A DNA stretch of 64,000 bases from Paracoccaceae bacterium. GTDB taxonomy: Bacteria; Pseudomonadota; Alphaproteobacteria; Rhodobacterales; Rhodobacteraceae. The notes beneath the pieces were generated by a model. It was not told the origin of the DNA and searched no databases. It was given only the letters and a program-made list of their open reading frames with translations. The position numbers and the translations under genes are program-made. The DNA lies in NCBI GenBank assembly GCA_014654775.1, contig JACVZW010000007.1, forward strand, positions 186,001 through 250,000. Direction: 5' to 3'. Positions 8,735-61,068 of the stretch are shown here, one piece after another (the stretch's first letter is position 1; every line of letters begins with the position of its first letter).

Positions 8735-10303
8735 ATGGCCGGAACCTTCGACGCAGTCCTGATCGGGGCGGGCCACAACACGCTGGCCGCCGCCCTGCAT
8801 CTGTCGGCCAAGGGCTGGCGGGTGGGGGTGTTCGAACAGGCCCCCGTCGCAGGCGGCGCGGTCAAGACCGGGGACTATACTCTGCCGGGGTTCCGGCATG
8901 ACTGGGCGGCAATGAACCTGTCCCTCTTCGCCGGCAGCCCGTTTTTCAAGGCCCATGGGGCAGAGCTCAGCCGCCACGGCTGCGACTTCGTTCCGGTGAA
9001 CCGCCCCTTCGCCTCGTCCTTCCCGGATGGCACGTGGGCGGGCGTCTCTACCGACATGGCTGAAACGCTGGCCACCTTCCGTGCCCTGTCCCGCCGCGAT
9101 GCAGAGACATGGGAGGGCCTCGTCGCGCGATTCGGGGCCGAGGCGCCGCATCTCTTCGGCCTCCTCGGGTCCAAGATGACATTCCGTGCGCTTGCATATT
9201 TCATGTTCAAAACGTTCCGCGCCAAGGGGGCGGGCGGCACGCTGGATTTCACTCGCTTCCTGCTGTCCTCGCCTCGGGCTTGGCTGGAAGAGACCTTTGA
9301 ACACCCCCATATCCGTGCGCTCCTTGCCGCATGGGGGATGCATCTGGATTTTGCCCCCGATATCGCGGGGGGCGCGATGTTCCCCTATCTGGAAGGCATG
9401 GCGGGGCAGGCCTTCGGCATGGCACTCGGCAAGGGCGGGGCGGATGTGATCGTCACGGCGCTGACCGCCGCCATCACCGCACGCGGCGGGGTGGTGGAAA
9501 CCGGCACGCCCGTCGCCCGCATCCTGCGCGACGGGAGCCGCGCCACGGGTATCGAACTGGCTGATGGCCGCCGCATCACCGCCAACCGCGCCGTGATCGC
9601 GGGCGTGGCGCCCCGCGCGCTGACCCGCCTGACGGGCGAGACAACGCCCGCCTTCGACCGCAGCATGGCGGCCTTCCGCCACGCCCCCGGCACGATGATG
9701 ATCCACCTCGCGATGGACGGCCTGCCCGACTGGCGCGCAGGCCCCGAATTGCAGCGCTTCGCGTATGTCCACCTCGCCCCCAGCCTCGACCAGATGGCGC
9801 GCACCTATGCCCAGTCGCAGGCAGGGCTTCTGCCGGATGAGCCGATCCTCGTCGTAGGCCAGCCCACCGTCTTCGATCCCTCCCGCGCACCCGCAGGCAA
9901 GCATGTGCTTTGGGTGCAGGTCCGCATGGCCCCCGGCACGATCACGGGCGACGCCAAGGGAGAGATCGGGGCGACCGACTGGACCACAGCCGCCGAACCC
10001 TTTGCCGACCGCGCGCTTGCGATCCTCGAGGCGCATGCCCCCGGCACGACGGCCAAGATCCTTGCACGTCGGATCGTGACGCCCGTGGAACTGGAGGCCG
10101 ACAACCCCAACCTGATCGGCGGCGATCAGGTCTGCGGCAGCCACCACCTGTCGCAGAACTTCGTCTTCCGGCCCGCGCGCGGCCATGCCGACGGGTCCAC
10201 GCCGCTGGCCAATCTGCACCTGACCGGGGCTGCCGTCTGGCCGGGCGCTGGCACCGGGGCGGGATCGGGATACCTTCTGGCGCGCAAACTCGCCGGAAAC
10301 TGA
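8735..10303 (+). CDS. NAD(P)/FAD-dependent oxidoreductase, phytoene-desaturase-like (copy 2)
   Basis: This 522-residue flavoprotein has the same architecture as the enzyme at 6244-7809. The Rossmann motif AVLIGAGHNTLAAALHLSAKG is followed by APVAGGAVKTGDYTLPGFRHD, and the C-terminus carries LHLTGAAVWPGAGTGAGSGYLL. ATG 8735 was preferred over an upstream in-frame ATG at 8693, which lies inside the AT-rich dyad. The chosen start has a GGGGAGAG ribosome site 4 bases ahead. It heads the rightward operon with the ABC importer genes, 37 bases before the binding-protein gene. The substrate is unknown. Confidence 0.8.
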   Translation: MAGTFDAVLIGAGHNTLAAALHLSAKGWRVGVFEQAPVAGGAVKTGDYTLPGFRHDWAAMNLSLFAGSPFFKAHGAELSRHGCDFVPVNRPFASSFPDGTWAGVSTDMAETLATFRALSRRDAETWEGLVARFGAEAPHLFGLLGSKMTFRALAYFMFKTFRAKGAGGTLDFTRFLLSSPRAWLEETFEHPHIRALLAAWGMHLDFAPDIAGGAMFPYLEGMAGQAFGMALGKGGADVIVTALTAAITARGGVVETGTPVARILRDGSRATGIELADGRRITANRAVIAGVAPRALTRLTGETTPAFDRSMAAFRHAPGTMMIHLAMDGLPDWRAGPELQRFAYVHLAPSLDQMARTYAQSQAGLLPDEPILVVGQPTVFDPSRAPAGKHVLWVQVRMAPGTITGDAKGEIGATDWTTAAEPFADRALAILEAHAPGTTAKILARRIVTPVELEADNPNLIGGDQVCGSHHLSQNFVFRPARGHADGSTPLANLHLTGAAVWPGAGTGAGSGYLLARKLAGN

Positions 10304-10340
10304 AAAAGACCAAAGAAAACCACCAACAGGGAAAACGACC

Positions 10341-11867
10341 ATGAACCTCAACCGCCGGAGCCTTCTGAAGCTCTCAGCCGCCACGATGGCCGCAGGCACG
10401 ATCGGCCTGCCGACCTTCGCGCAAGCGATCGATGAACTGGTGATCGCCTATAACGTCAACCTGCCGTCGTGGGACCCCACCGTCGGGCCCAGCGCGGTGA
10501 ACCCCACCATTCAGGGCATCTACCAGTCGGTCTTCGACCAGTACATCTTGCAGCAGCCCGACCTGTCGCCCGCCCCCGGCCTGTTGACCGAATGGGGCTG
10601 GAACGAAGATCGCACGCAGGTCTGGATGACGGTGCGCGAAGGCGTCACCTGGCATGACGGGTCGCCCTTCACGGCCGAGGATGTGGCCTGGAGCCTTGCC
10701 CGCGTCGCCAATCCCGAGACAGGCAGCCCGATCCAGTTCGTTTGGGGCACGCTCGCCAATCACCGGGTCGAGGGCAACCGTGTCATCGCGGATGTGGCAC
10801 AGTTTGACCCCACCATCTTCAAATGGATGTATTTCCTGACCGGTTATGTCCTGCCCAAGGCCTATTACGAAAAGGTGGGTCCCGAAGGGTTCGAGGCCGC
10901 GCCCATCGGCACCGGCCCCTATATGGTTGAAAAGTTCGAACGGAACGCCTTCGTCCGCCTGAAGGCCAACGCGAACTACTGGGGCGGCAAGCCCGATTTC
11001 GACACGGTCACGATCAAGTTCGTCACAGATGCCGCCGCGCGGGTGGCCGAGGTTGAATCGGGCAATGCCCATGTCACGCTGGAAGTGCCTTACGAGGAGT
11101 ATGACCGCCTGACGCAGAACGGTCCGTTGGCCGGGCTTGCCCAGCCGATCTCGGATATCGGCATGATCTTCCTGAACGACATCGAGGTGATGACAGACCC
11201 GAACGTCCGCAAGGCGGCTGCTCACGCCATCGACAAGCAGGCGATCATCGACCGGCTGCTGTCGGGCTATGGCGTCAAGATCGACACGCTGCAGACCCCG
11301 CAATACGCGGCCTTCGATGCCTCGATCACCGTGCCCTATGACGAGGCCAAGGCGATCGAACTGCTGGCGGCTTCGGGGTACGGACCGGATAACCCGGTGA
11401 AGTTCAAGATCCAGACGACGCGCGGCTTCAAGCCCAAGGATTACGAGATGGTGCAGGCCATCGTCGGCCTCTGGCGCAAGGTGGGGATCGAGGCCGAGAT
11501 CGAGGTCTACGAGATTGCCAAGCATTTCGAACTCCGCGGCGCTGACCAGCTTGCCCCGGCGGCCTTCTACAACTGGGGCAATTCGGTGGGCGATCCGACC
11601 ACCTCGACCGGTTTCGCAATGTTCGGCCCCTCGCCCCATTCCGTCTGGGATGGCGAGGATCTGATCGGCATGATCGGCCCGCTTTGGGGCGAGACGGACG
11701 AGGCGAAGCGCATCGAAGGTTGGAAGGCGGTCGACAAGTACATCGCCGAGAACGCGCTGGTCATTCCCCTGTTGCAGTATGTCCAGCCGATCCTTGCCGC
11801 GCCGGGGGTGACGGTGATCTCGCACGCCTCGGGTGCGCTGCTGCCGCATCTGATGAAGCGGGCCTGA
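10341..11867 (+). CDS. ABC transporter substrate-binding protein, family 5 (peptide/nickel/opine type)
   Basis: This 508-residue exported binding protein has a twin-arginine-like signal peptide (NRRSLLKLSAATMAAG, cleavage probable after TFAQA near residue 29). The family-5 motif ENGVTWHDGSPFTAEDVAWSL-type segment is seen here as REGVTWHDGSPFTAEDV (about residues 99-115), and GTGPYMVEKFE lies near 190. It captures substrate in the periplasm for the two permeases and two ATPases that follow. Family-5 proteins bind peptides, opines, glycosides or metal chelates, so the ligand cannot be named. A strong hairpin lies 10 bases after the stop and may favour higher expression of this gene over the permeases. 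Confidence 0.9.
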   Translation: MNLNRRSLLKLSAATMAAGTIGLPTFAQAIDELVIAYNVNLPSWDPTVGPSAVNPTIQGIYQSVFDQYILQQPDLSPAPGLLTEWGWNEDRTQVWMTVREGVTWHDGSPFTAEDVAWSLARVANPETGSPIQFVWGTLANHRVEGNRVIADVAQFDPTIFKWMYFLTGYVLPKAYYEKVGPEGFEAAPIGTGPYMVEKFERNAFVRLKANANYWGGKPDFDTVTIKFVTDAAARVAEVESGNAHVTLEVPYEEYDRLTQNGPLAGLAQPISDIGMIFLNDIEVMTDPNVRKAAAHAIDKQAIIDRLLSGYGVKIDTLQTPQYAAFDASITVPYDEAKAIELLAASGYGPDNPVKFKIQTTRGFKPKDYEMVQAIVGLWRKVGIEAEIEVYEIAKHFELRGADQLAPAAFYNWGNSVGDPTTSTGFAMFGPSPHSVWDGEDLIGMIGPLWGETDEAKRIEGWKAVDKYIAENALVIPLLQYVQPILAAPGVTVISHASGALLPHLMKRA

Positions 11868-47530: not shown

Positions 47531-48727
47531 ATGCCCCTTTCTCCCAAAACCCTTTTCCTCGCCACCCTGTTCCTCGCCCCGCTTCCCGCCCTCGCACAGG
47601 ACCTCTCGGCCGAGATCGCGGCGCAGGGCCTCACCGCCACCGAGGCCCGCCTCGCCGCCCTGCCCGCCGCAACCGAAGCCGACCGCTTCGCCCTTGGCGG
47701 CATCCGCTTCCTGCGCGCGATCGAGACCACCTTCCAAACCCGCTACCGCACTGGGATGGATGACCCCACCGGGATGCTGCCCCTCCTGCGCCTCAACGCA
47801 GGCGCCGCTCCCGAGGCAGTCTTCCAACCCGGCGACGTCGCCGCCCTCTTCGCACAGGCCGCCACCGACATGGCCGCCGCCCGCGACCCCTTGCAAGGCC
47901 TCGACACCGGCCCAGACTTCACCGTCGAAATCCGCCTTGCCGACCTCTGGTTCGACGTCAACGCCGACGGCACGCGCAGCCCCGACGAAGACCTGCTGCA
48001 ACTCCTCGGCCCCAGCCTTCTCGGTTTCCGCTGGTTCGACCGCGATCCCGCCGCCCCCGCCCCCGTGATCCGCTTCGACCGCGCCGATGCGGCATGGCTT
48101 GCGGCCTATACCCATCTTCTCGAAGGCGTGGCCAACACCGTCCTCGCCTATGATCCGACCGACGCCCTCACCCGCGCCGCCGCCACGCGCGACGGCATGG
48201 CCGCGCTGTCGCCCCCCGCCTTCTCTGAATACGACCTGTTCGCCCCCGGCCTCGACGCGCTCTGGGTGATCCTCGAAGCGCTGGACCAACAGCCCGACGC
48301 CGCCCGCCTGACCGCCGCCCGCGACCAATTCCTGTCCATGGTGGCCGCGAACCGCGCCTTCTGGGCAGCGGTGGAGGGCGAGACCGACAACAACGCCGAA
48401 TGGCTCCCCAATGCCCGTCAGACCTCGGCCCTCGGCCTCACGCTGCCGCCCGCGACGGGGGCGACATGGCTCGCCGTCCTCGCCGATGGCGAGGCGCTGC
48501 TGAAGGGCGAGAAACTGATCCCCTACTGGCGTCTGGGCGACGGCGCAGGCGTGAACCTCGGCCGCATGTTCACCGACCCCGCGCCGATCGACGTGAAGGA
48601 CTGGATACAGGGCGCAGGTGCCCTGCCCTATCTGGAACAGGGCGAAACCGTCAGCGCCGAAAGCTGGTCGCGCTTTCAGGGCATGATGGGCGGCGACGCG
48701 ATGCTGATGGCAGTCTGGCTGAACTGA
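47531..48727 (+). CDS. Secreted conserved protein of unknown function
   Basis: This 398-residue protein has a clear signal peptide (SPKTLFLATLFLAPLPALAQDLS, cleavage after ALA). The mature part is soluble and mostly helical, with RFALGGIRFLRAIETTFQTRYRTG and an EF-hand-like loop DVNADGTRSPDEDL near residue 145. DLFAPGLDALWVILEALDQ and LIPYWRLGDGAGVNLGRMF follow. I do not recognise a named domain. The single calcium-loop-like segment suggests metal binding only weakly. Two REP-like palindromes follow its stop. Confidence 0.75.
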   Translation: MPLSPKTLFLATLFLAPLPALAQDLSAEIAAQGLTATEARLAALPAATEADRFALGGIRFLRAIETTFQTRYRTGMDDPTGMLPLLRLNAGAAPEAVFQPGDVAALFAQAATDMAAARDPLQGLDTGPDFTVEIRLADLWFDVNADGTRSPDEDLLQLLGPSLLGFRWFDRDPAAPAPVIRFDRADAAWLAAYTHLLEGVANTVLAYDPTDALTRAAATRDGMAALSPPAFSEYDLFAPGLDALWVILEALDQQPDAARLTAARDQFLSMVAANRAFWAAVEGETDNNAEWLPNARQTSALGLTLPPATGATWLAVLADGEALLKGEKLIPYWRLGDGAGVNLGRMFTDPAPIDVKDWIQGAGALPYLEQGETVSAESWSRFQGMMGGDAMLMAVWLN

Positions 48728-48732
48728 AGGGG

Positions 48733-48801
48733 AAGATGGGCCGAAAGGCCCATCCTACGACCAACGTCGACCCGTAGGATGGGCCATCCGGCCCATCCTC
48801 C
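48733..48801. repeat. REP-like palindromes 3 and 4 (pair)
   Basis: The first unit (48733-48758) is GATGGGCC-GAAA-GGCCCATC with only one full GTAG end. The second (48774-48801) is GTAGGATGGGCC-ATCC-GGCCCATCCTCC. Fifteen bases separate them. They follow the secreted-protein gene and, having GAAA loops or near-perfect stems, could also act as 3'-end hairpins. Confidence 0.82.
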
Positions 48802-48870
48802 CCAAGGCCAACCTGTGCAGCACCGCACCATTAACCACGATTCCCTGCGCCACTCTCTCCGAATTTGTAT

Positions 48871-48911
48871 GTACACTTTGCTGCACAGAATGCGGCACAA
48901 CATCCGGCACA
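48871..48911. promoter_or_regulatory. GCACA array 1: four repeats at exact 12-bp intervals, upstream of pepT
   Basis: The pentamers begin at 48871 (GTACA), 48883, 48895 and 48907 (all GCACA), each 12 bases apart. Intervening bases are partly conserved with array 2 (59606-59646): CTGCACA-nnn-TGCGGCACA-nnn-TCCGGCACA is common to both. The array lies 99 bases upstream of the pepT start and just past REP-like copies 3 and 4. A cooperatively bound activator or repressor is a likely explanation. Confidence 0.6.
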
Positions 48912-49009
48912 ACCGTTTTTCCCCAACCAACTGAAACCAAAACAAAATCCCGCAACAGATTGACTTCCCCCCGCCGCAGCCGCCACATCCCGCCAAGGGA
49001 GATCGCAGA

Positions 49010-50251
49010 ATGACCGCACGCACCGAAGACCTCGCCGCCCGCCTGATGCGCTACTGCGCCATCGACACACAATCCGATGCCGACAGCCCGTCGCAACCCT
49101 CCACCGCAATCCAACTGACCCTTGCCATTCTGCTGGTCGAGGAACTCAAGCAGATCGGCGCCGCCGATATCCGCCTCACCGATTACGGCACCGTGCTGGC
49201 CACCATTCCTGCAACGGCAGAAGGCCCCACCATCGGCTTCCTCGCCCATATGGACACCGCCCCCCAGTTCAACGCCACCGGCGTGAAACCCCGCCTCATC
49301 CGCGGCTACAACGGCGGCGCGATCAGCTATCCTGACGATCCGACCCTCACTCTCACCCCAGAATCCTCACCCAACCTGTTGAAAAAGCTGGGCCATGACA
49401 TCATCACCGCCTCCGGCACCACCCTCCTTGGAGCCGATGACAAGGCCGGCATCGCCATCCTCCTTCACACCGCCGAAACGCTCCTGAAAGACCCGGCCAT
49501 CCCCCACGGCCCTATCCGCCTCGCCTTCACACCAGACGAAGAAATCGGTCGCGGCGTCGACAAGCGCCTTCCGCAAGACCTCGCCGTCGACTGGGCCTAT
49601 ACCTTCGACGGCGGCGAGGCGGGCGAAATCGAATATGAAACCTTCTCCGCCGACGGGGCAGAGGTCAAAATCGAAGGCGTCTCGATCCATCCGGGCTGGG
49701 CCAAGGGCAAGATGGTCAACGCCATCCACCTCGCCGCCAAGATCATCGCGGCGCTGCCGCAGCACACGATGCTCCCCGAACTCACCGATGGCCGCGACGG
49801 CTTCCTCCATGCAACCGAGATGGCAGGCGGCTCCTCCGCCATGACGCTCCGCTTCATCCTGCGCGATTTCGAACGCGATGGACTTGAGGCGAAAGGGAAA
49901 ATCCTCCGCGCCGTCTGTGATGCCGTGCAGGCAGGCGAACCCCGCGCCCGCATCACCTGCACCATCACGCCGCAATATCGCAACATGCGCTATTGGTTGG
50001 AAAAGGACATGCGCCCCGTGACGCTGGCGCAGGACGCCTGCCGCGACATCGGCCTTGACCCCATCTCCGTCCCCATCCGCGGCGGCACCGATGGGTCAAG
50101 GCTCACCGAAATGGGCGTCCCCTGCCCCAACCTCTTCACAGGCATGCAGGAAATTCACGGGCCACTGGAATGGGTCTCGGTGCAGGACATGGAACGCGCC
50201 TCGGACCTGATGCTCGCCCTTCTGCGCCGCGCCGCGGCGCAGCACAGGTAG
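49010..50251 (+). CDS. pepT: Peptidase T (tripeptide aminopeptidase, M20 family)
   Basis: This 413-residue dinuclear zinc peptidase removes the N-terminal residue from tripeptides. Metal and catalytic motifs are visible in order: FLAHMDTAPQ, LLGADDKAGIAIL, FTPDEEIGRG, TFDGGEAGEIEYE and GGTDGSRLTEMG...NLFTGMQEIHGPLEW. The stop TAG is supplied by REP-like copy 5. GGGAGATCGCAGA precedes the ATG at 49010. Confidence 0.93.
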   Translation: MTARTEDLAARLMRYCAIDTQSDADSPSQPSTAIQLTLAILLVEELKQIGAADIRLTDYGTVLATIPATAEGPTIGFLAHMDTAPQFNATGVKPRLIRGYNGGAISYPDDPTLTLTPESSPNLLKKLGHDIITASGTTLLGADDKAGIAILLHTAETLLKDPAIPHGPIRLAFTPDEEIGRGVDKRLPQDLAVDWAYTFDGGEAGEIEYETFSADGAEVKIEGVSIHPGWAKGKMVNAIHLAAKIIAALPQHTMLPELTDGRDGFLHATEMAGGSSAMTLRFILRDFERDGLEAKGKILRAVCDAVQAGEPRARITCTITPQYRNMRYWLEKDMRPVTLAQDACRDIGLDPISVPIRGGTDGSRLTEMGVPCPNLFTGMQEIHGPLEWVSVQDMERASDLMLALLRRAAAQHR

Positions 50252-50275
50252 GATGGGCAATGCTGCCCATCCTAC
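50248..50275. repeat. REP-like palindrome 5, containing the pepT stop codon
   Basis: GTAGGATGGGCA-ATGC-TGCCCATCCTAC is a perfect 12-bp inverted repeat. Its TAG (50249-50251) ends pepT and its 3' end is one base before the methyltransferase ATG, so the repeat fills the whole gap. Confidence 0.85.
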
Positions 50276-50276
50276 G

Positions 50277-50945
50277 ATGAAACACCCCTCCCCCTACGCC
50301 GCCCCCGGCTTCTACGACAAGGCCCTGCGCGACGGCCGCCACCGCGACATCGTCGGCGGCCGCTGGGACGAAACCCCGCGCATCGTGCTGCCGCTCCTCA
50401 CCCTGCACGGCCTGACCCCGGACGACCACCTCCTCGACATCGGCGCGGGCGCCCTCCGCCTCGGTCGCCACCTCGCCCCACAGGTGGCGGCCTATTGGGC
50501 CACCGACGCCTCCCGCGCCCTGATGCTTAAGGGTTGGGAAACCGAACTGGACGACCCTACCCGAAACCGCTTGCCGCAGGACCATCTGATCGAAGACGCC
50601 GCCTTCACCTACCCCGACATCCCCGACAGCATCACCTTCGCCCTCGCCTTCGCCGTCTTCACCCACCTCCCGGCGCAAGATCTTCACACTGCTTTAACCA
50701 ACCTCCGCCCCCGCTTCCCGCGCCTGCGCCGGATCATCTTCACCGCCTTCCTCGCCCCCGAAGGCCATGCGGGGCCCCACCGCCAGCCCGACGGCGTCGT
50801 CACCCATCCCGACCGCTTTCCTTGGCACTTGACAGAGCAGCATGTGACCGCCATCGCCACTGCCGCAGGCTTTGCCGCCACCGCCCATCCCCATCGCCTG
50901 CCGCGCGGGCAGGTGATGTTCACCGCCGATCCGCTCGCCCCGTAG
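50277..50945 (+). CDS. Class I SAM-dependent methyltransferase-like protein
   Basis: This 222-residue protein has LLDIGAGALRLGRHLAPQVAAYWATDAS (motif I and II region, about residues 57-84) and FALAFAVFTHLPAQDLHTAL, typical of Rossmann-fold methyltransferases. The substrate is unknown. ATG 50277 was chosen because the longer in-frame start at 50253 would translate the REP-like element. REP-like copy 6 provides its stop codon TAG. Confidence 0.72.
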   Translation: MKHPSPYAAPGFYDKALRDGRHRDIVGGRWDETPRIVLPLLTLHGLTPDDHLLDIGAGALRLGRHLAPQVAAYWATDASRALMLKGWETELDDPTRNRLPQDHLIEDAAFTYPDIPDSITFALAFAVFTHLPAQDLHTALTNLRPRFPRLRRIIFTAFLAPEGHAGPHRQPDGVVTHPDRFPWHLTEQHVTAIATAAGFAATAHPHRLPRGQVMFTADPLAP

Positions 50946-50967
50946 GATGGGCTGTATGGCCCATCCG
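50942..50967. repeat. REP-like palindrome 6 (degenerate), containing the methyltransferase stop codon
   Basis: GTAGGATGGGC-TGTAT-GGCCCATCCG keeps the left arm but only part of the right arm. The TAG at 50943-50945 is the stop of the preceding gene. Confidence 0.7.
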
Positions 50968-51016
50968 GACGGATAGCCCCCCGCGAATCATCCTTTATCG
51001 CTAACGGTTTCACCGT

Positions 51017-51047
51017 TGTGATCACACTTTTTCGACGTGTGATCACA
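51017..51047. promoter_or_regulatory. Tandem TGTGATCACA boxes upstream of sucC, 21-bp spacing
   Basis: Perfect TGTGATCACA at 51017-51026 and 51038-51047, centres 21 bp apart, 108 bases upstream of the sucC start. AACGG-TTTCA-CCGTT overlaps the left side (51003-51017). The same pair with equal spacing precedes sdhC (41480-41510). Confidence 0.72.
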
Positions 51048-51154
51048 AAATGCCGTTTTTTCGCCGGAAACGACGGCATACCATAGAATACCGTTTCATC
51101 CCCACCCCGTTCCATGGCATTCCACCGCAAAACCACAGCGATGGGACGGCTCAG

Positions 51155-52348
<1,194 letters not shown>

Positions 52349-52352
52349 TCCA

Positions 52353-53237
52353 ATGGCCGTTCTCGTCAACGAAAACACCCGCGTCATTTGTCAGGGCTTC
52401 ACCGGCAGCCAAGGCACCTTCCACTCCGAACAGGCCATCGCCTACGGGACCAAGATGGTCGGCGGGGTCACACCAGGCAAAGGCGGCAGCACGCATCTTA
52501 ACCTGCCGGTATTCGATTCCGTGCATGAAGCGAAGGCCACAACGCAGGCCAACGCCACCGTGATCTACGTCCCCCCGCCCTTCGCCGCAGACAGTATCCT
52601 CGAGGCGATCGATGCCGAGATGGAATTGATCGTCTGCATCACCGAAGGCATCCCGGTGCTGGACATGATGAAGGTGAAGCGCGCGCTGGAAGGGTCGAAA
52701 TCCCGCCTGATCGGGCCGAACTGCCCCGGCGTGATCACGCCGGGTGCCTGCAAGATCGGCATCATGCCCGGCCACATCCACCAGCGCGGCTCGGTCGGCG
52801 TGGTCTCGCGCTCCGGCACGCTCACCTATGAGGCCGTCAAGCAGACCACCGACCTCGGCCTCGGCCAGTCCTCTGCCGTGGGCATCGGCGGCGACCCGAT
52901 CAAGGGCACCGAACATATCGACGTGCTGGAAATGTTCCTCGCCGACCCCGAAACCCAGTCGATCATCATGATCGGCGAAATCGGTGGCAGCGCCGAAGAA
53001 GAGGCCGCGCAGTTCCTCATGGATGAGGCGAAACGCGGCCGCGCCAAGCCTTGCGCGGGCTTTATCGCGGGCCGCACCGCCCCGCCCGGCCGTCGCATGG
53101 GTCATGCTGGCGCGATCGTTGCAGGGGGCAAGGGCGACGCGGAGTCGAAGATCGAGGCGATGCGCGCCGCAGGCATCGTGGTGGCCGACAGCCCCGCGAC
53201 GCTGGGCGAGGCGGTGATGAAGGCGATCGGCAAGTAA
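52353..53237 (+). CDS. sucD: Succinyl-CoA synthetase alpha subunit
   Basis: This 294-residue subunit binds CoA and carries the phosphorylated histidine, seen in [16 protein letters not shown] (near residue 250). CoA-side features are [21 protein letters not shown] and [19 protein letters not shown]; the [19 protein letters not shown] loop follows. It starts 4 bases after sucC. Unusually, a small membrane protein gene and a glycosyltransferase gene follow, before sucA. Confidence 0.97.
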
Positions 53238-53264
53238 AGGAACAGGGCGATGGAGGAGACGACG

Positions 53265-53402
53265 ATGGACATCCGCACGAAGACGGTCATGGCGTCTTTC
53301 CTCGCCCTGCTCGGGCTGCTCGCCCTCGCCGCCTGGACATCCCTCGGCCAAGCCGAACCCAACCGCGCCCTCCACGGCGCGGTGTTCGGGCAGATGAAAT
53401 GA
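53265..53402 (+). CDS. Small single-pass membrane protein
   Basis: This 45-residue protein starts MDIRTKTVMASFLALLGLLALAAWTSLG, giving a hydrophobic segment of about 18 residues, and ends in LHGAVFGQMK. GGAGGA lies 7 bases before ATG 53265; an in-frame ATG 15 bases upstream with AAGGAAC before it is also possible. It begins 27 bases after sucD and is probably on the same transcript. I recognise no family. Confidence 0.55.
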   Translation: MDIRTKTVMASFLALLGLLALAAWTSLGQAEPNRALHGAVFGQMK

Positions 53403-53433
53403 ACTAGGACAGGATCGGGGACCGCGCCGCGCG

Positions 53434-54750
53434 ATGGAACCAGAATTGAGCCAGTCAGGACGCCCGTCACTAAAGACTGCCGCCCCACTGGCGGCAGCGG
53501 TGGTTCTTGTTCTGCCGGTCGGTGCGATTCATCCCAGAACCGGCGGCGGTCAGCGATCTGGCATCCTATTCGACGCGCTGAAGAAGGTCGGCGACGTCGT
53601 CGTGATCATTCTTTCCGAGCGAGGGGTCGACGGGGCCGAAGTCTTTTTCCCCGGAGCCCGTCGGGTCGTTTCTTTCACGACGCTCGCGATGGCGGCTCCA
53701 CCGGCAAATGCAGCGCTTCGGGCACTTCTGGCCGTCAACCGCTTCCTGTTTCCCGGCCGTACCTTCGCAACACAGGAAGCTCTGTCGGCAGCGATCCTGC
53801 GCGAATTTGACCAGTGGGATGATGCAGGACCCTCGACCGGACCGCGGATCGTCGCTGCGCGCTATGCGCGCACATTTGCGATAACCGGCCTTCGTGCCTG
53901 TCCCGAACGCGGTCTCTTCACCTGTCTCGACATTGACGATCGCGACGACCACAAGATCGACCTGCAAATCCGTCGCAGACTGGGCACCCTGCTCAGCAAC
54001 CTTACTGGGCTCCTTTGGCGCCGCCGCTTCGTGAAAGCGTTGCAGGGCACACTGTCACGCGCCTCGATCCTTTTCCTCGCCAAGGCAGACGACTTTTTTG
54101 ACATAGCGACCCCGTCACAGTTCGTCATGCCGAACGTCCCCTTCCTTGCCCCGGATCCAACTGCCATGGTTCTGGTCGAAGGGACCACCGAAACCCTCCT
54201 CTTCGTCGGCAGTGCTGGTCACCGCCCCAACCTCGCCGGCGTGACATGGTTCCTGCGGGCCTGCTGGCCCGCCATTCGGGCTGCCCGGCCCGCCGCGCGG
54301 TTCCGGATTGTGGGGCTTGGCGACTGGTCCGCCCTTCCTGCCGACCTCGCCGCACAGCCCGGGGTCGAGGTGGTGGGCGGCGTCGATGACCTCGCCCCGG
54401 AATACGGGCAGGCCCGCGCCGCGATCTGCCCCATCCTCGAGGGCGCGGGCTCCCAGATCAAAGTGATCGAGGCCTGTGCCTATGGCCGCCCCGTCGTCAG
54501 CACCGCCTTCGCCTCCGGCGGCTTCGGCCCCGAGATCGAGCGCGCCCTCAGCGTCGCCTCAGATCCGGCCGGGTTCGCGCAAGCCTGCATCGACCTTCTT
54601 GCCGATCCGGCTCGGGCCGCCCGTCAGGGCGCGACCTTGCGCGCGCTGCAGCAGGCGACCCATTCTCGCGAGGCAGTCGAGAACCTCATCGTCACCACGC
54701 TGACCGATCTCGTCGCATCGGTCGGCCCACATCGGAAGGTGCCGTCCTGA
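53434..54750 (+). CDS. Glycosyltransferase family 4-like protein, probably acquired
   Basis: This 438-residue protein has a GT-B layout. The N-terminal half has VVLVLPVGAIHPRTGGGQRSGILFDAL, and the C-terminal half has LLFVGSAGHRPNLAGVTWFLRACWPAI, RFRIVGLGDWS and AAICPILEGAGSQIKVIEACAYGRPVVST, the GT4 donor-site region. The 5' half uses codons rare around it (ATA at 53881-53883, more A/T third positions), while the 3' half is normal. It interrupts the usual sucCD-sucAB order. Its acceptor is unknown; a surface polysaccharide is likely. Confidence 0.82.
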   Translation: MEPELSQSGRPSLKTAAPLAAAVVLVLPVGAIHPRTGGGQRSGILFDALKKVGDVVVIILSERGVDGAEVFFPGARRVVSFTTLAMAAPPANAALRALLAVNRFLFPGRTFATQEALSAAILREFDQWDDAGPSTGPRIVAARYARTFAITGLRACPERGLFTCLDIDDRDDHKIDLQIRRRLGTLLSNLTGLLWRRRFVKALQGTLSRASILFLAKADDFFDIATPSQFVMPNVPFLAPDPTAMVLVEGTTETLLFVGSAGHRPNLAGVTWFLRACWPAIRAARPAARFRIVGLGDWSALPADLAAQPGVEVVGGVDDLAPEYGQARAAICPILEGAGSQIKVIEACAYGRPVVSTAFASGGFGPEIERALSVASDPAGFAQACIDLLADPARAARQGATLRALQQATHSREAVENLIVTTLTDLVASVGPHRKVPS

Positions 54751-54847
54751 TGCCGAACCCGACCGCAACCCGTGACCCCATTTTCGTCCGGCCCTCCAGC
54801 CAAACCGTGGCAAGGCCCAATTCCCTTCACGCCCCCGAGGTGCATCC

Positions 54848-57814
<2,967 letters not shown>

Positions 57815-57891
57815 TCCCATCCCGCCCGCGCCACCCCGGCGCGGGCCAGACCCACCGATTGGCGCCCCGAAGCGGCGCGGAGGAACCGAAA

Positions 57892-59115
57892 ATGACCGAT
57901 GTTATGGTGCCAGCCCTTGGCGAAAGCGTGTCCGAAGCGACCGTTTCGACCTGGTTCAAGAAGCCCGGCGATTACGTGAAGCAGGACGAAATGCTGTGTG
58001 AACTCGAGACCGACAAGGTCTCGGTCGAAGTGCCCGCCCCCGTGTCCGGCACGCTGGCCGAAATCCTCGCCCCCGAAGGCGCGACCGTGGCCGCCAATGC
58101 GCGCCTTGCGATCATGACGGAAGGCGGGGCCGCCGCAGCGCCCGCGCCCGCCGCCAAGGCCGCGCCCGCGCCCGCCGCCGCCCCTGCCCCCGCCCCGGCG
58201 GCCAAGGATGTCGAAGACGCCCCCGCCGCCAAAAAGGCGATGGCCGAGGCAGGCCTCTCCCGCGATCAGGTACAGGCGACCGGCCGAGACGGCCGCGTGA
58301 TGAAGGAAGACGTCGCCCGCACCGTGGCCGGGGCCTCTGGTGCCGCGGCCGCCGCCGTGGCGCCTGCGCCCGCCCCCGCCGCCCTCCCCCGCGCGCCCGT
58401 CCCCGCCGACGATGCCGCCCGGGAAGAGCGGGTCAAAATGACCCGCCTGCGCCAGACCATCGCCCGCCGCCTGAAGGACGCGCAGAACACCGCCGCGATG
58501 CTCACGACCTATAACGAGGTCGACATGTCCGGCATCATGGAGTTGCGCAACACCTACAAAGACGCTTTTGAAAAGAAGCACGGGGTGAAAATGGGCTTCA
58601 TGTCCTTCTTCGTGAAGGCCTGCACCCACGCCCTGAAAGAGGTGCCCGAGGTCAATGCCGAAATCGACGGCACTGACATCGTCTACAAGAACTACGTCCA
58701 TATGGGCGTGGCCGTGGGCACGCCCTCGGGCCTCGTCGTCCCGGTCCTGCGTGACGCCGATCAGATGGGCTTCGCCGCCATCGAGAAGAAGATCGCCGAA
58801 CTGGGCATCCGCGCCCGCGACGGCAAACTGTCGATGGCCGAGATGCAGGGCGGGTCCTTCACCATCTCCAACGGCGGCGTCTACGGCTCGCTCATGTCCT
58901 CGCCGATCCTGAACCCGCCGCAATCGGGCATCCTCGGGATGCACAAGATTCAGGACCGCCCCGTGGTCGTGAACGGCCAGATCGTCATCCGCCCGATGAT
59001 GTATCTCGCCCTCTCCTACGACCACCGCATCGTCGACGGCAAAGGTGCCGTGACCTTCCTCGTCCGCGTCAAGGATGCGCTGGAAGACCCGCGCCGATTG
59101 CTCATGGACCTCTGA
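57892..59115 (+). CDS. sucB: Dihydrolipoyllysine succinyltransferase, E2 of 2-oxoglutarate dehydrogenase
   Basis: This 407-residue E2 has one lipoyl domain with the lipoylated lysine in [12 protein letters not shown] (Lys42), an Ala/Pro-rich linker (about residues 78-105), and a peripheral subunit-binding domain ([30 protein letters not shown]). The catalytic core contains [14 protein letters not shown] and [11 protein letters not shown], the family His and Asp. GGAGG lies 8 bases before ATG 57892; longer in-frame starts run into sucA. REP-like copy 7 follows the stop. Confidence 0.96.
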
Positions 59116-59118
59116 CCC

Positions 59119-59146
59119 GTAGGATGGGCAATATTGCCCATCCTAC
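59119..59146. repeat. REP-like palindrome 7
   Basis: GTAGGATGGGCA-ATAT-TGCCCATCCTAC is a perfect palindrome over all 28 bases, 4 bases after the sucB stop. Confidence 0.85.
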
Positions 59147-59194
59147 CGCAGGGCGGGGCGCAGCCCCCGCCTTGCATCGCCCCAACCGAAGCAC

Positions 59195-59593
59195 ATGATG
59201 ACCCCCGAACTCACCGCCCTCACCCTCGCCGGCCTCCTGCAGATGGTGCAGTTCATCCTCTTCGCCGTCCCGGCCAATCTGGAGGTCGGCACACGCTATA
59301 CCTCCGGCCCCCGCGACATGCCGCCCGAACGGCCCTTCTCTACCGTCACGGCCCGCCTGCAGCGGGCGCTCAACAACCATTTCGAAGGGCTGATCCTCTT
59401 CACCCTCGCCGTGGTCGTGGTCACTCTCTCGGACCAGTCCACCGCCTTCACCGCCGCCTGCGCCTTCGCCTATCTCGGTGCGCGGCTTCTCTACATCCCG
59501 GCCTATGCGCTCGGCTGGCGTCTCTGGCGCTCGGTCATCTGGGCGGTGGGCTGGTTCGCCACGCTCGGCCTCATGCTGGCCGCGCTGATCTGA
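59195..59593 (+). CDS. MAPEG-family membrane protein
   Basis: This 132-residue protein has four hydrophobic segments. It matches the MAPEG family (membrane-associated eicosanoid/glutathione metabolism) through RLQRALNNHFEGLILFTLAVVV and YLGARLLYIPAYALGW. Bacterial members are mostly of unknown function. It is inserted between sucB and lpd, 48 bases after REP-like copy 7. GCACA array 2 follows its stop. Confidence 0.82.
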   Translation: MMTPELTALTLAGLLQMVQFILFAVPANLEVGTRYTSGPRDMPPERPFSTVTARLQRALNNHFEGLILFTLAVVVVTLSDQSTAFTAACAFAYLGARLLYIPAYALGWRLWRSVIWAVGWFATLGLMLAALI

Positions 59594-59605
59594 CATGATT
59601 TCTAC

Positions 59606-59646
59606 GCACAGTCGTCTGCACATGGTGCGGCACAGAGTCCGGCACA
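59606..59646. promoter_or_regulatory. GCACA array 2: four repeats at exact 12-bp intervals, upstream of lpd
   Basis: GCACA begins at 59606, 59618, 59630 and 59642, each 12 bases apart, ending 33 bases before the lpd start. Between the repeats the pattern TGCACA-nnn-TGCGGCACA-nnn-TCCGGCACA is identical to that of array 1 (48871-48911). A transcription-factor array near the lpd promoter is the simplest reading. Confidence 0.62.
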
Positions 59647-59679
59647 GCACAGACGACAGGATAAGGAAGGAACCGACCC

Positions 59680-61068
<1,389 letters not shown>

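What the first reader, a model, noticed from the sequence alone, without database searches (positions are those of the whole stretch)
48871..59646. Two phased arrays of four GCACA repeats at exact 12-bp intervals
Array 1 (48871-48911, before pepT) and array 2 (59606-59646, before lpd) each have four pentamers 12 bases apart, with the shared pattern TGCACA-nnn-TGCGGCACA-nnn-TCCGGCACA. The arrays are over 10 kb apart in unrelated gaps, so common ancestry of the spacers or strong selection is needed. A 12-bp period is slightly more than one helical turn, so successive sites rotate gradually around the helix, as for a filament or oligomer-forming regulator. This is not a feature class I can name.
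Basis: seen in the sequence. Interest (0 to 1): 0.75.

Follow-up and report, generated by a model that had tools for sequence, protein, structure and literature searches.

The report
Oriented four-unit repeat arrays across chromosomes
The two odd repeat arrays belong to a family of about ninety short, four-unit DNA arrays in this Rhodobacter-like bacterium, nearly all pointing the same way relative to the strand bias left by DNA replication and mostly found at the same places in related species, which suggests landmarks read by an unknown protein.

Summary
The arrays are real. Array 2 has four exact GCACA; array 1 has three plus GTACA. They belong to a family of 87 arrays in the 4.5-Mb genome (91 raw hits, reversed-pattern control 0); 83 of 87 have exactly four units at 12-bp phase. 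None lies inside a called gene; convergent gaps are enriched, divergent (promoter) gaps depleted. In 86 of 87 the GCACA strand is the locally C-rich one, whatever the gene directions, so the arrays are polar like the replication arms (34 of 34 in Tabrizicola TH137, weaker in G002). Spacing is over-regular in two of three genomes tested. Most positions are shared with relatives (27 of 29, 33 of 34, 13 of 20), while the commonest letters between the cores differ by genome. A sister species has similar sites at 11-bp phase, three of them at array loci of this genome. REP mobility, FtsK/KOPS, a promoter regulon and typical DnaA boxes fit poorly. Best reading: polar chromosome landmarks for an unidentified oligomeric or multi-domain DNA-binding protein that co-evolves with its sites. 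Reader and function are inferred, not shown.

The parts
48871..48911 (+). array 1: four units at 12-bp phase (GTACA 48871; GCACA 48883, 48895, 48907), upstream of pepT
   Evidence: one of 87 arrays, (locus L010)
48862..48871 (+). flank box AATTTGTATG running into unit 1 (flavour A arrays)
   Evidence: consensus of 16 flavour-A arrays; same box in G007
48814..48837 (+). upstream flank box TGTGCAGCACCGCACCATTAACCA of flavour A
   Evidence: consensus of flavour A; read
59606..59646 (+). array 2: four exact GCACA at 12-bp phase, 33 bp before the lpd start codon
   Evidence: arrays at the same place before lpd in related species
49010..50251 (+). pepT, gene after array 1 (context, not part of the array)
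   Evidence: NF003976
59680..61068 (+). lpd, dihydrolipoyl dehydrogenase, gene after array 2 (context)
   Evidence: TIGR01350

Best explanation
The arrays are polar landmarks of the chromosome. About ninety places, in G002 one per 49 kb on average, each offer four same-direction binding units at 12-bp phase, about 48 bp in all, outside genes and oriented with the replication-linked strand bias (TGTGC form on the G-rich strand). Shown: number, phase, unit count, location, polarity, largely shared positions, genome-specific commonest letters. Inferred: an oligomeric or multi-domain DNA-binding protein binds the four units as one directional complex and uses the arrays for organisation or segregation of the chromosome arms; its specificity, and between clades its step (11 or 12 bp), changed and the sites followed.
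For: 91 hits of the triple pattern, reversed control 0. Four units in 83 of 87 arrays, and in 23 of 29, 32 of 34 and 15 of 20 in G002, TH137 and G007. In 800 kb of G002 GCACA pairs occur 45 times at 12 bp, 24 at 24 bp, at most 4 at any other distance from 6 to 50. Polarity by local GC skew: 86 of 87, in every gene context; TH137 34 of 34 and first 29 G002 arrays 24; G007 18 of 20 that I picked along the chromosome. A null drawing array letters from local composition gives about 70%. Whole chromosome: G002 66 of 84, G007 37 of 43. Gap CV 0.66 in G002, 0 of 5000 random sets as low; 0.60 in G000, 0.0008 of random sets. Shared positions. Sister-species sites at 11 bp, 9 of 9 on the C-rich strand.
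Against: No reader protein was found and no function measured. TGTGC itself is leading-biased (650 to 281); multiplied over four units that would give about 97%. With AT content included, local composition favours the array strand in only 71 of 87. In G002 polarity is mixed from 0.28 to 1.05 Mb (8 and 8). In G007 gap CV is 0.96, on an incomplete set of 43. Homogenisation within genomes is clear only for spacer 2 against TH137; spacer 1 (0.69 ortholog; 0.66 and 0.76 within) and the comparison with G002 do not show it clearly. At six G000 array loci bridged in the G008 sample no two-unit 11-bp site is seen. Array 2 does lie in a promoter-like place.
Confidence: 0.42

Rival explanations
1. A dispersed intergenic repeat family (REP/BIME or MITE-like) that once spread by copying, with strand-biased insertion at replication forks, and now stays without a function of its own.
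For: Shared flank boxes in several flavours; absence from genes and preference for convergent gaps; orientation bias is known for single-strand transposition (recalled). Homogenised letters could come from copying or gene conversion.
Against: No Y1 transposase at E 0.001 in 7 of 8 genomes, G000 and G002 included; one weak hit below the cut-off in G009. No fold beyond shuffles, z -0.27 to 1.25, two elements, both strands. Positions shared between species; over-regular spacing in two genomes; 11-bp sites in a sister species.
Confidence: 0.22
2. Binding sites of a global transcription factor with an oligomeric mode, controlling many genes such as lpd and pepT.
For: Array 2 lies 33 bp before lpd, and an array lies there too in G002, G005, G006, G007, G009, G014 and G018.
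Against: Convergent gaps 34 against 13.9 expected, divergent 11 against 26.4 (p 4e-9); codirectional gaps 21 with and 19 against the gene direction.
Confidence: 0.15
3. DnaA platforms: clusters of four weak DnaA sites in one direction, as in E. coli oriC, used for titration or nucleotide exchange like datA/DARS (the latter recalled).
For: E. coli oriC gap regions hold four weak sites separated by 2 bp, i.e. 11-bp phase for 9-mers (PMC6070618, passages). Units end in CACA. An array lies 142, 456 and 193 bp from the DnaA C-terminal domain match in G002, G000 and G009.
Against: The TTAT half of TTATNCACA (recalled consensus) is absent: mean mismatches 2.2 to 3.8 by unit; sister-species units read TGCAT as well as TGCAC.
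Confidence: 0.1
4. Orienting sites of the FtsK translocase (KOPS) or of a direction-dependent fork barrier such as Tus-Ter.
For: Leading-strand polarity.
Against: The DNA-reading region of FtsK gamma is identical in 17 of 19 genus members with and without 12-bp arrays, one R to K change in G004 and G008. GGGNAGGG is itself leading-biased, 212 to 68 in 680 kb, and a 2026 paper maps it as KOPS on replicons that include Paracoccus (PMC13342612, passages). Tus-like barriers were not tested.
Confidence: 0.07

Closest known systems
KOPS (FtsK orienting polar sequences)
   Same: polar, leading-strand oriented chromosomal signals
   Different: 8-bp GGGNAGGG; the arrays are about 48 bp of four phased units, outside called genes, found in part of one genus while FtsK gamma stays the same
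AIMS (architecture imparting sequences)
   Same: strand-biased sequences thought to shape chromosome processing
   Different: defined as octamers rising towards the terminus; G002 arrays number 28, 27 and 25 in thirds of distance from the terminus
Four-site weak DnaA clusters of oriC
   Same: four same-direction sites at near-helical phase
   Different: no TTAT half, about ninety places, letters differ between species
REP/BIME and other dispersed intergenic repeats
   Same: many intergenic copies, often at gene ends
   Different: direct not inverted repeats, no RAYT found, largely shared places between species, polar

Membership tests
KOPS | leading-strand polarity switching at ori and ter | tested here: inconclusive
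   polar by local skew; in G002 mixed near the terminus and dif was not found
KOPS | short GGGNAGGG-type motif read by FtsK gamma | tested here: not met
   different sequence; gamma reading region the same in species with and without arrays, 19 of 19 read
AIMS | 8-bp words more abundant towards the terminus | tested here: not met
   48-bp arrays; 28, 27, 25 by thirds of distance in G002, or 29, 29, 22 with ter at 1.03 Mb
REP/BIME | inverted repeats able to fold | tested here: not met
   two elements, both strands
REP/BIME | RAYT (Y1_Tnp) transposase in the genome | tested here: not met
   0 of 8 over the cut-off; one weak hit in G009
DnaA-box cluster | units matching TTATNCACA | tested here: not met
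DnaA-box cluster | bound by DnaA | not testable with these tools
   needs EMSA or ChIP
Transcription-factor regulon | sites concentrated in promoters, related to gene direction | tested here: not met
Known structured RNA element | match to an Rfam family | tested here: not met
   0 matches at gathering score in window 48600-59800

The most novel reading that the evidence does not exclude
A clade-specific chromosome address system: an undescribed protein with a four-module or tetrameric footprint reads direction-giving arrays placed about every 49 kb from origin to terminus, and the whole set of sites changes letters, and once its step between 11 and 12 bp, together with that protein, like a self-updating polar ruler of the chromosome.
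Probability: 0.27. Interest if true: 0.92.

Novelty: new variant of a known kind. Interest (0 to 1): 0.76.

Why it matters
If one protein reads the arrays, this is a genome-wide polar signal distinct from KOPS, with a fixed unit number and a visible difference of period between sister clades. It would show how a reader and about a hundred sites can change together, and make testable what besides FtsK tells a bacterium which way along the chromosome it is facing.

Tried and rejected
Structure of the element: no stable fold. RAYT/REP mobility: no transposase over the cut-off. FtsK as reader: gamma conserved. Rfam: none. Phage records: no match for one 131-bp element. Plasmids: one record, Fuscovulum ytuae. 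Family-wide search for KGCACN7TGCACN7KGCAC: outside the genus 51 of 246 genomes have 78 matches in all, none more than 6, against 40 for the reversed control; several are simple repeats or one conserved site (my sum of its table). A dif scan with a recalled consensus, in the stretches held only, found no convincing site. The exact right-box pattern was too strict. A CCCG 12-bp signal in G008 dissolved. TTAACC boxes as CtrA half-sites: thought of from memory, not tested.

Rows dropped or chosen: 91 raw hits collapse to 87 arrays where triples overlap; four loci hold tandem pairs sharing flanks. 92 G002 chromosome hits collapse to 84; three of 32 G002 rows repeat the same arrays (27 of 29 distinct matched); with a flank offset under 150 bp the counts are 25 of 29, 29 of 34 and 12 of 20. 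One search uses 22 and 28 pairs, those with offsets up to 60 bp; its upstream row for TH137 was empty. G007 polarity by skew used 20 of 43 strict-pattern arrays, picked by me. The G002 terminus of 1.03 Mb was read from coarse skew; finer sampling puts the change between 0.82 and 0.90 Mb. The 1.8-Mb split in G007 was chosen by eye. One search filtered the G008 list by the base before TGCA; one search gives the unfiltered 25 rows at 11 bp (15 on the C-rich strand), where the near-symmetric site is read on both strands; one search uses the directional form. I lowered the best explanation from 0.45 to 0.42 and the novel case from 0.30 to 0.27 on re-reading.

Full report
OBSERVATION. Window 59606-59646 holds four exact GCACA at 12-bp steps; 48871-48911 holds GTACA then three GCACA at the same steps. 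Five GCACA-N7-GCACA matches in the window against 0.13 expected, none of 100 shuffles reaching five. The genes behind them are pepT and lpd.

GENOME-WIDE FAMILY. In the window's own genome (4.52 Mb, 93 contigs; window = contig 7, 186001-250000) three GCACA at 12-bp phase occur 91 times, 42 and 49 on the two strands; the pattern read backwards occurs 0 times. Overlaps collapsed, there are 87 arrays. Counting any xCAC or TACA in phase, 83 of 87 have exactly four units, 2 have three and 2 five. GCACA of units 2-4 is invariant by construction of the search; unit 1, not searched for, is also nearly constant (C 85%, A 99%, C 100%, A 99%). Sequence not chosen for arrays confirms the phase: in 800 kb of relative G002 GCACA pairs stand 12 bp apart 45 times and 24 bp apart 24 times, at most four times at any other distance from 6 to 50. 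A search over all 5-mers puts GCACA at 12 bp first in 400 kb of G002 and TGCAC at 12 bp first in 400 kb of G007.

ANATOMY. Flavour A (16 arrays, array 1 among them): CTGTGC..CGCACC.TTAACCA, about 23 bp, AAATTTGTATGtACAcTTTGCT, then the array. The other 71: ACCG..CGCTGCGTGCCCACAGTTTGCT, then the array. Some of these have a right-hand box TTAANCCAGCGYYCGCAAG about 25 bp behind the array; the same box follows arrays with other units in G014, G005, G017 and G009.

GENES. With a simple codon-usage gene caller of my own no array lies within a gene. Contexts, array read forward: convergent 34, codirectional 21 with and 19 against, divergent 11, two unassigned. Expected from intergenic length sampled in G002: convergent 13.9, codirectional 44.8, divergent 26.4; p 4e-9. 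So the sites avoid promoters on the whole and ignore gene direction. One exception seen: in G002 a four-unit relative lies inside an ORF near 2.3105 Mb.

POLARITY. The GC skew of the 2-4 kb around each array, on the GCACA strand, is negative in 86 of 87 (mean -0.15), alike in every gene context (33 of 34 convergent, 21 of 21, 19 of 19, 11 of 11, 2 of 2). In TH137 34 of 34, in the first 29 arrays of G002 24, in 20 arrays of G007 18. On the complete G002 chromosome the skew changes sign near 2.3 Mb and between about 0.82 and 0.90 Mb, with weak or reversed patches. Arrays run 3+/26- beyond 2.32 Mb, 0/4 before 0.28, 8/8 from 0.28 to 1.05 and 28+/7- from 1.05 to 2.32 Mb; 66 of 84 agree with arms split at 1.03 and 2.32 Mb, and 16 of 20000 sign shuffles give as large a cumulative swing. 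In G007 3+/15- below and 22+/3- above 1.8 Mb, 2 of 20000. Nulls: letters drawn from local composition give about 70% for the observed orientations, and with AT content counted composition favours the array strand in 71 of 87; the genome-wide bias of TGTGC (650 to 281) multiplied over four units gives about 97%. Polarity alone therefore does not prove function.

SPACING. In G002 80 places, mean 48.7 kb, CV 0.66; none of 5000 random sets is as even. In G000, within ten long contigs, CV 0.60, 0.0008 of random sets. In G007 0.96 on an incomplete set of 43. Density in G002 does not clearly rise towards the terminus: 28, 27, 25 by thirds.

RELATIVES. Counts of GCACN8GCACN8GCAC against the reversed pattern: G018 124/1, G007 120/3, G002 110/6, G000 106/15, G009 90/8, G005 44/15, G017 44/8, G012 27/14, G001 24/2, G006 23/7, G014 21/11; not clearly above control: G010 10/3, G008 14/10, G003 8/13, G011 9/13, G013 6/7, G015 5/5, G016 4/4, G004 0/0. 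Stricter patterns with control 0 support G006, G012 and G014. Where lpd was matched in full, bearers are 93-97% identical to this Lpd and the rest 91% or less, so bearers look like one clade (inference). Named hits of the public scan are Tabrizicola sp. TH137 (33 loci), Rhodobacter amnigenus HSP-20 (2) and a Rhodobacteraceae MAG (1); 19 others look like chance by their printed flanks. A Fuscovulum ytuae plasmid hit has the coordinates of the G002 contig 3 array, so G002 is probably that species; G009 is probably TH137 (inference).

POSITION AND LETTERS. With arrays masked, 27 of 29 distinct G002 arrays, 33 of 34 TH137 and 13 of 20 G007 arrays have flanks matching a G000 array locus, best piece 73-93% identical, same orientation but for one G002 row; with an offset under 150 bp 25, 29 and 12. 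Yet the commonest letters differ: the first spacer is AAAGGCG in 38 of 87 arrays of G000, AAACCCG in 11 of 32 rows of G002 and GTTTGCG in 14 of 34 of TH137; G007 uses GTATGCAC..GTCTGCAC..ATCTGCAC..CGCTGCAC forms. In 28 ortholog pairs with TH137 the second spacer is 0.49 identical between orthologs and 0.71/0.64 within genomes, whereas the 16 bp downstream are 0.75 and 0.44/0.46; but the first spacer is 0.69 and 0.66/0.76, and the first 19 bp of the array 0.90 and 0.76/0.75. Against G002 (22 pairs) spacers are 0.78 and 0.69/0.79. So homogenisation within genomes is seen in one part of the array in one comparison.

SISTER CLADE. Before lpd, G003, G008, G011 and G013 carry two or three TGCAT/TGCAC units about 11 bp apart; G004, G010, G015 and G016 show none. 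In 800 kb of G008 the form TGCATCG.[CT]TGTGCA occurs 9 times, all on the C-rich strand; 0 times in G002 (800 kb) and G007 (400 kb) and 0 in the reversed control. Three of the places correspond to G000 array loci: lpd, L027 and L036 near ftsK. At six other G000 loci bridged in the sample (L004, L023, L024, L059, L066, L086) no two-unit site is seen.

INTERPRETATION. A fixed count of four, exact phase, polarity independent of genes, largely shared places, even spacing in two genomes and genome-specific letters fit best a directional protein complex that uses the arrays as chromosome landmarks. Neighbours hint the same way without proving it: arrays lie 142, 456 and 193 bp from the DnaA C-terminal domain match, and 1.2, 1.2 and 1.7 kb from the FtsK gamma match, in G002, G000 and G009, and one lies about 70 bp from a parB-like gene of the F. 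ytuae plasmid. FtsK itself is an unlikely reader. My ten literature searches (open-licence library only) showed no description of these arrays in their listings; I read passages only of PMC7901474, PMC5993296, PMC13342612, PMC6070618 and PMC10316083.

Noticed in passing
G002 C1 near 2310548 (locus L283, ORF 10135-11085 minus strand): A four-unit array relative lies inside an ORF and reads in frame as a four-residue repeat with AQ; 12 bp is four codons.
   Followed up: partly
G062, G190, G229 (same letters); G193, G194, G267 (near); The 29-mer GGCACGCGTTTGTGCACCAATTTGTGCAC recurs, exactly or nearly, in six other genera of the family; looks like one conserved operator or gene segment.
   Followed up: no
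Fuscovulum ytuae plasmid NZ_CP124537.1, 16939-17000 (L445): An array stands about 70 bp from a ParB-domain gene, in a neighbourhood with an AAA ATPase, integrase, ScpB and DnaA-N-domain genes; G000 contig 14 has an array near a ParB hit below the cut-off.
   Followed up: partly
L006, L027, L056, L073: Four loci carry tandem pairs of arrays about 115-117 bp apart, suggesting local duplication of the whole element.
   Followed up: no
L157 (G002) and L071 (G000): The one matched locus where the array points the other way relative to its flanks; in G002 local skew there is near zero.
   Followed up: partly
window 47531-48727 and 59195-59593: Proteins of 398 and 132 aa before the two arrays without any NCBIfam match.
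   Followed up: no
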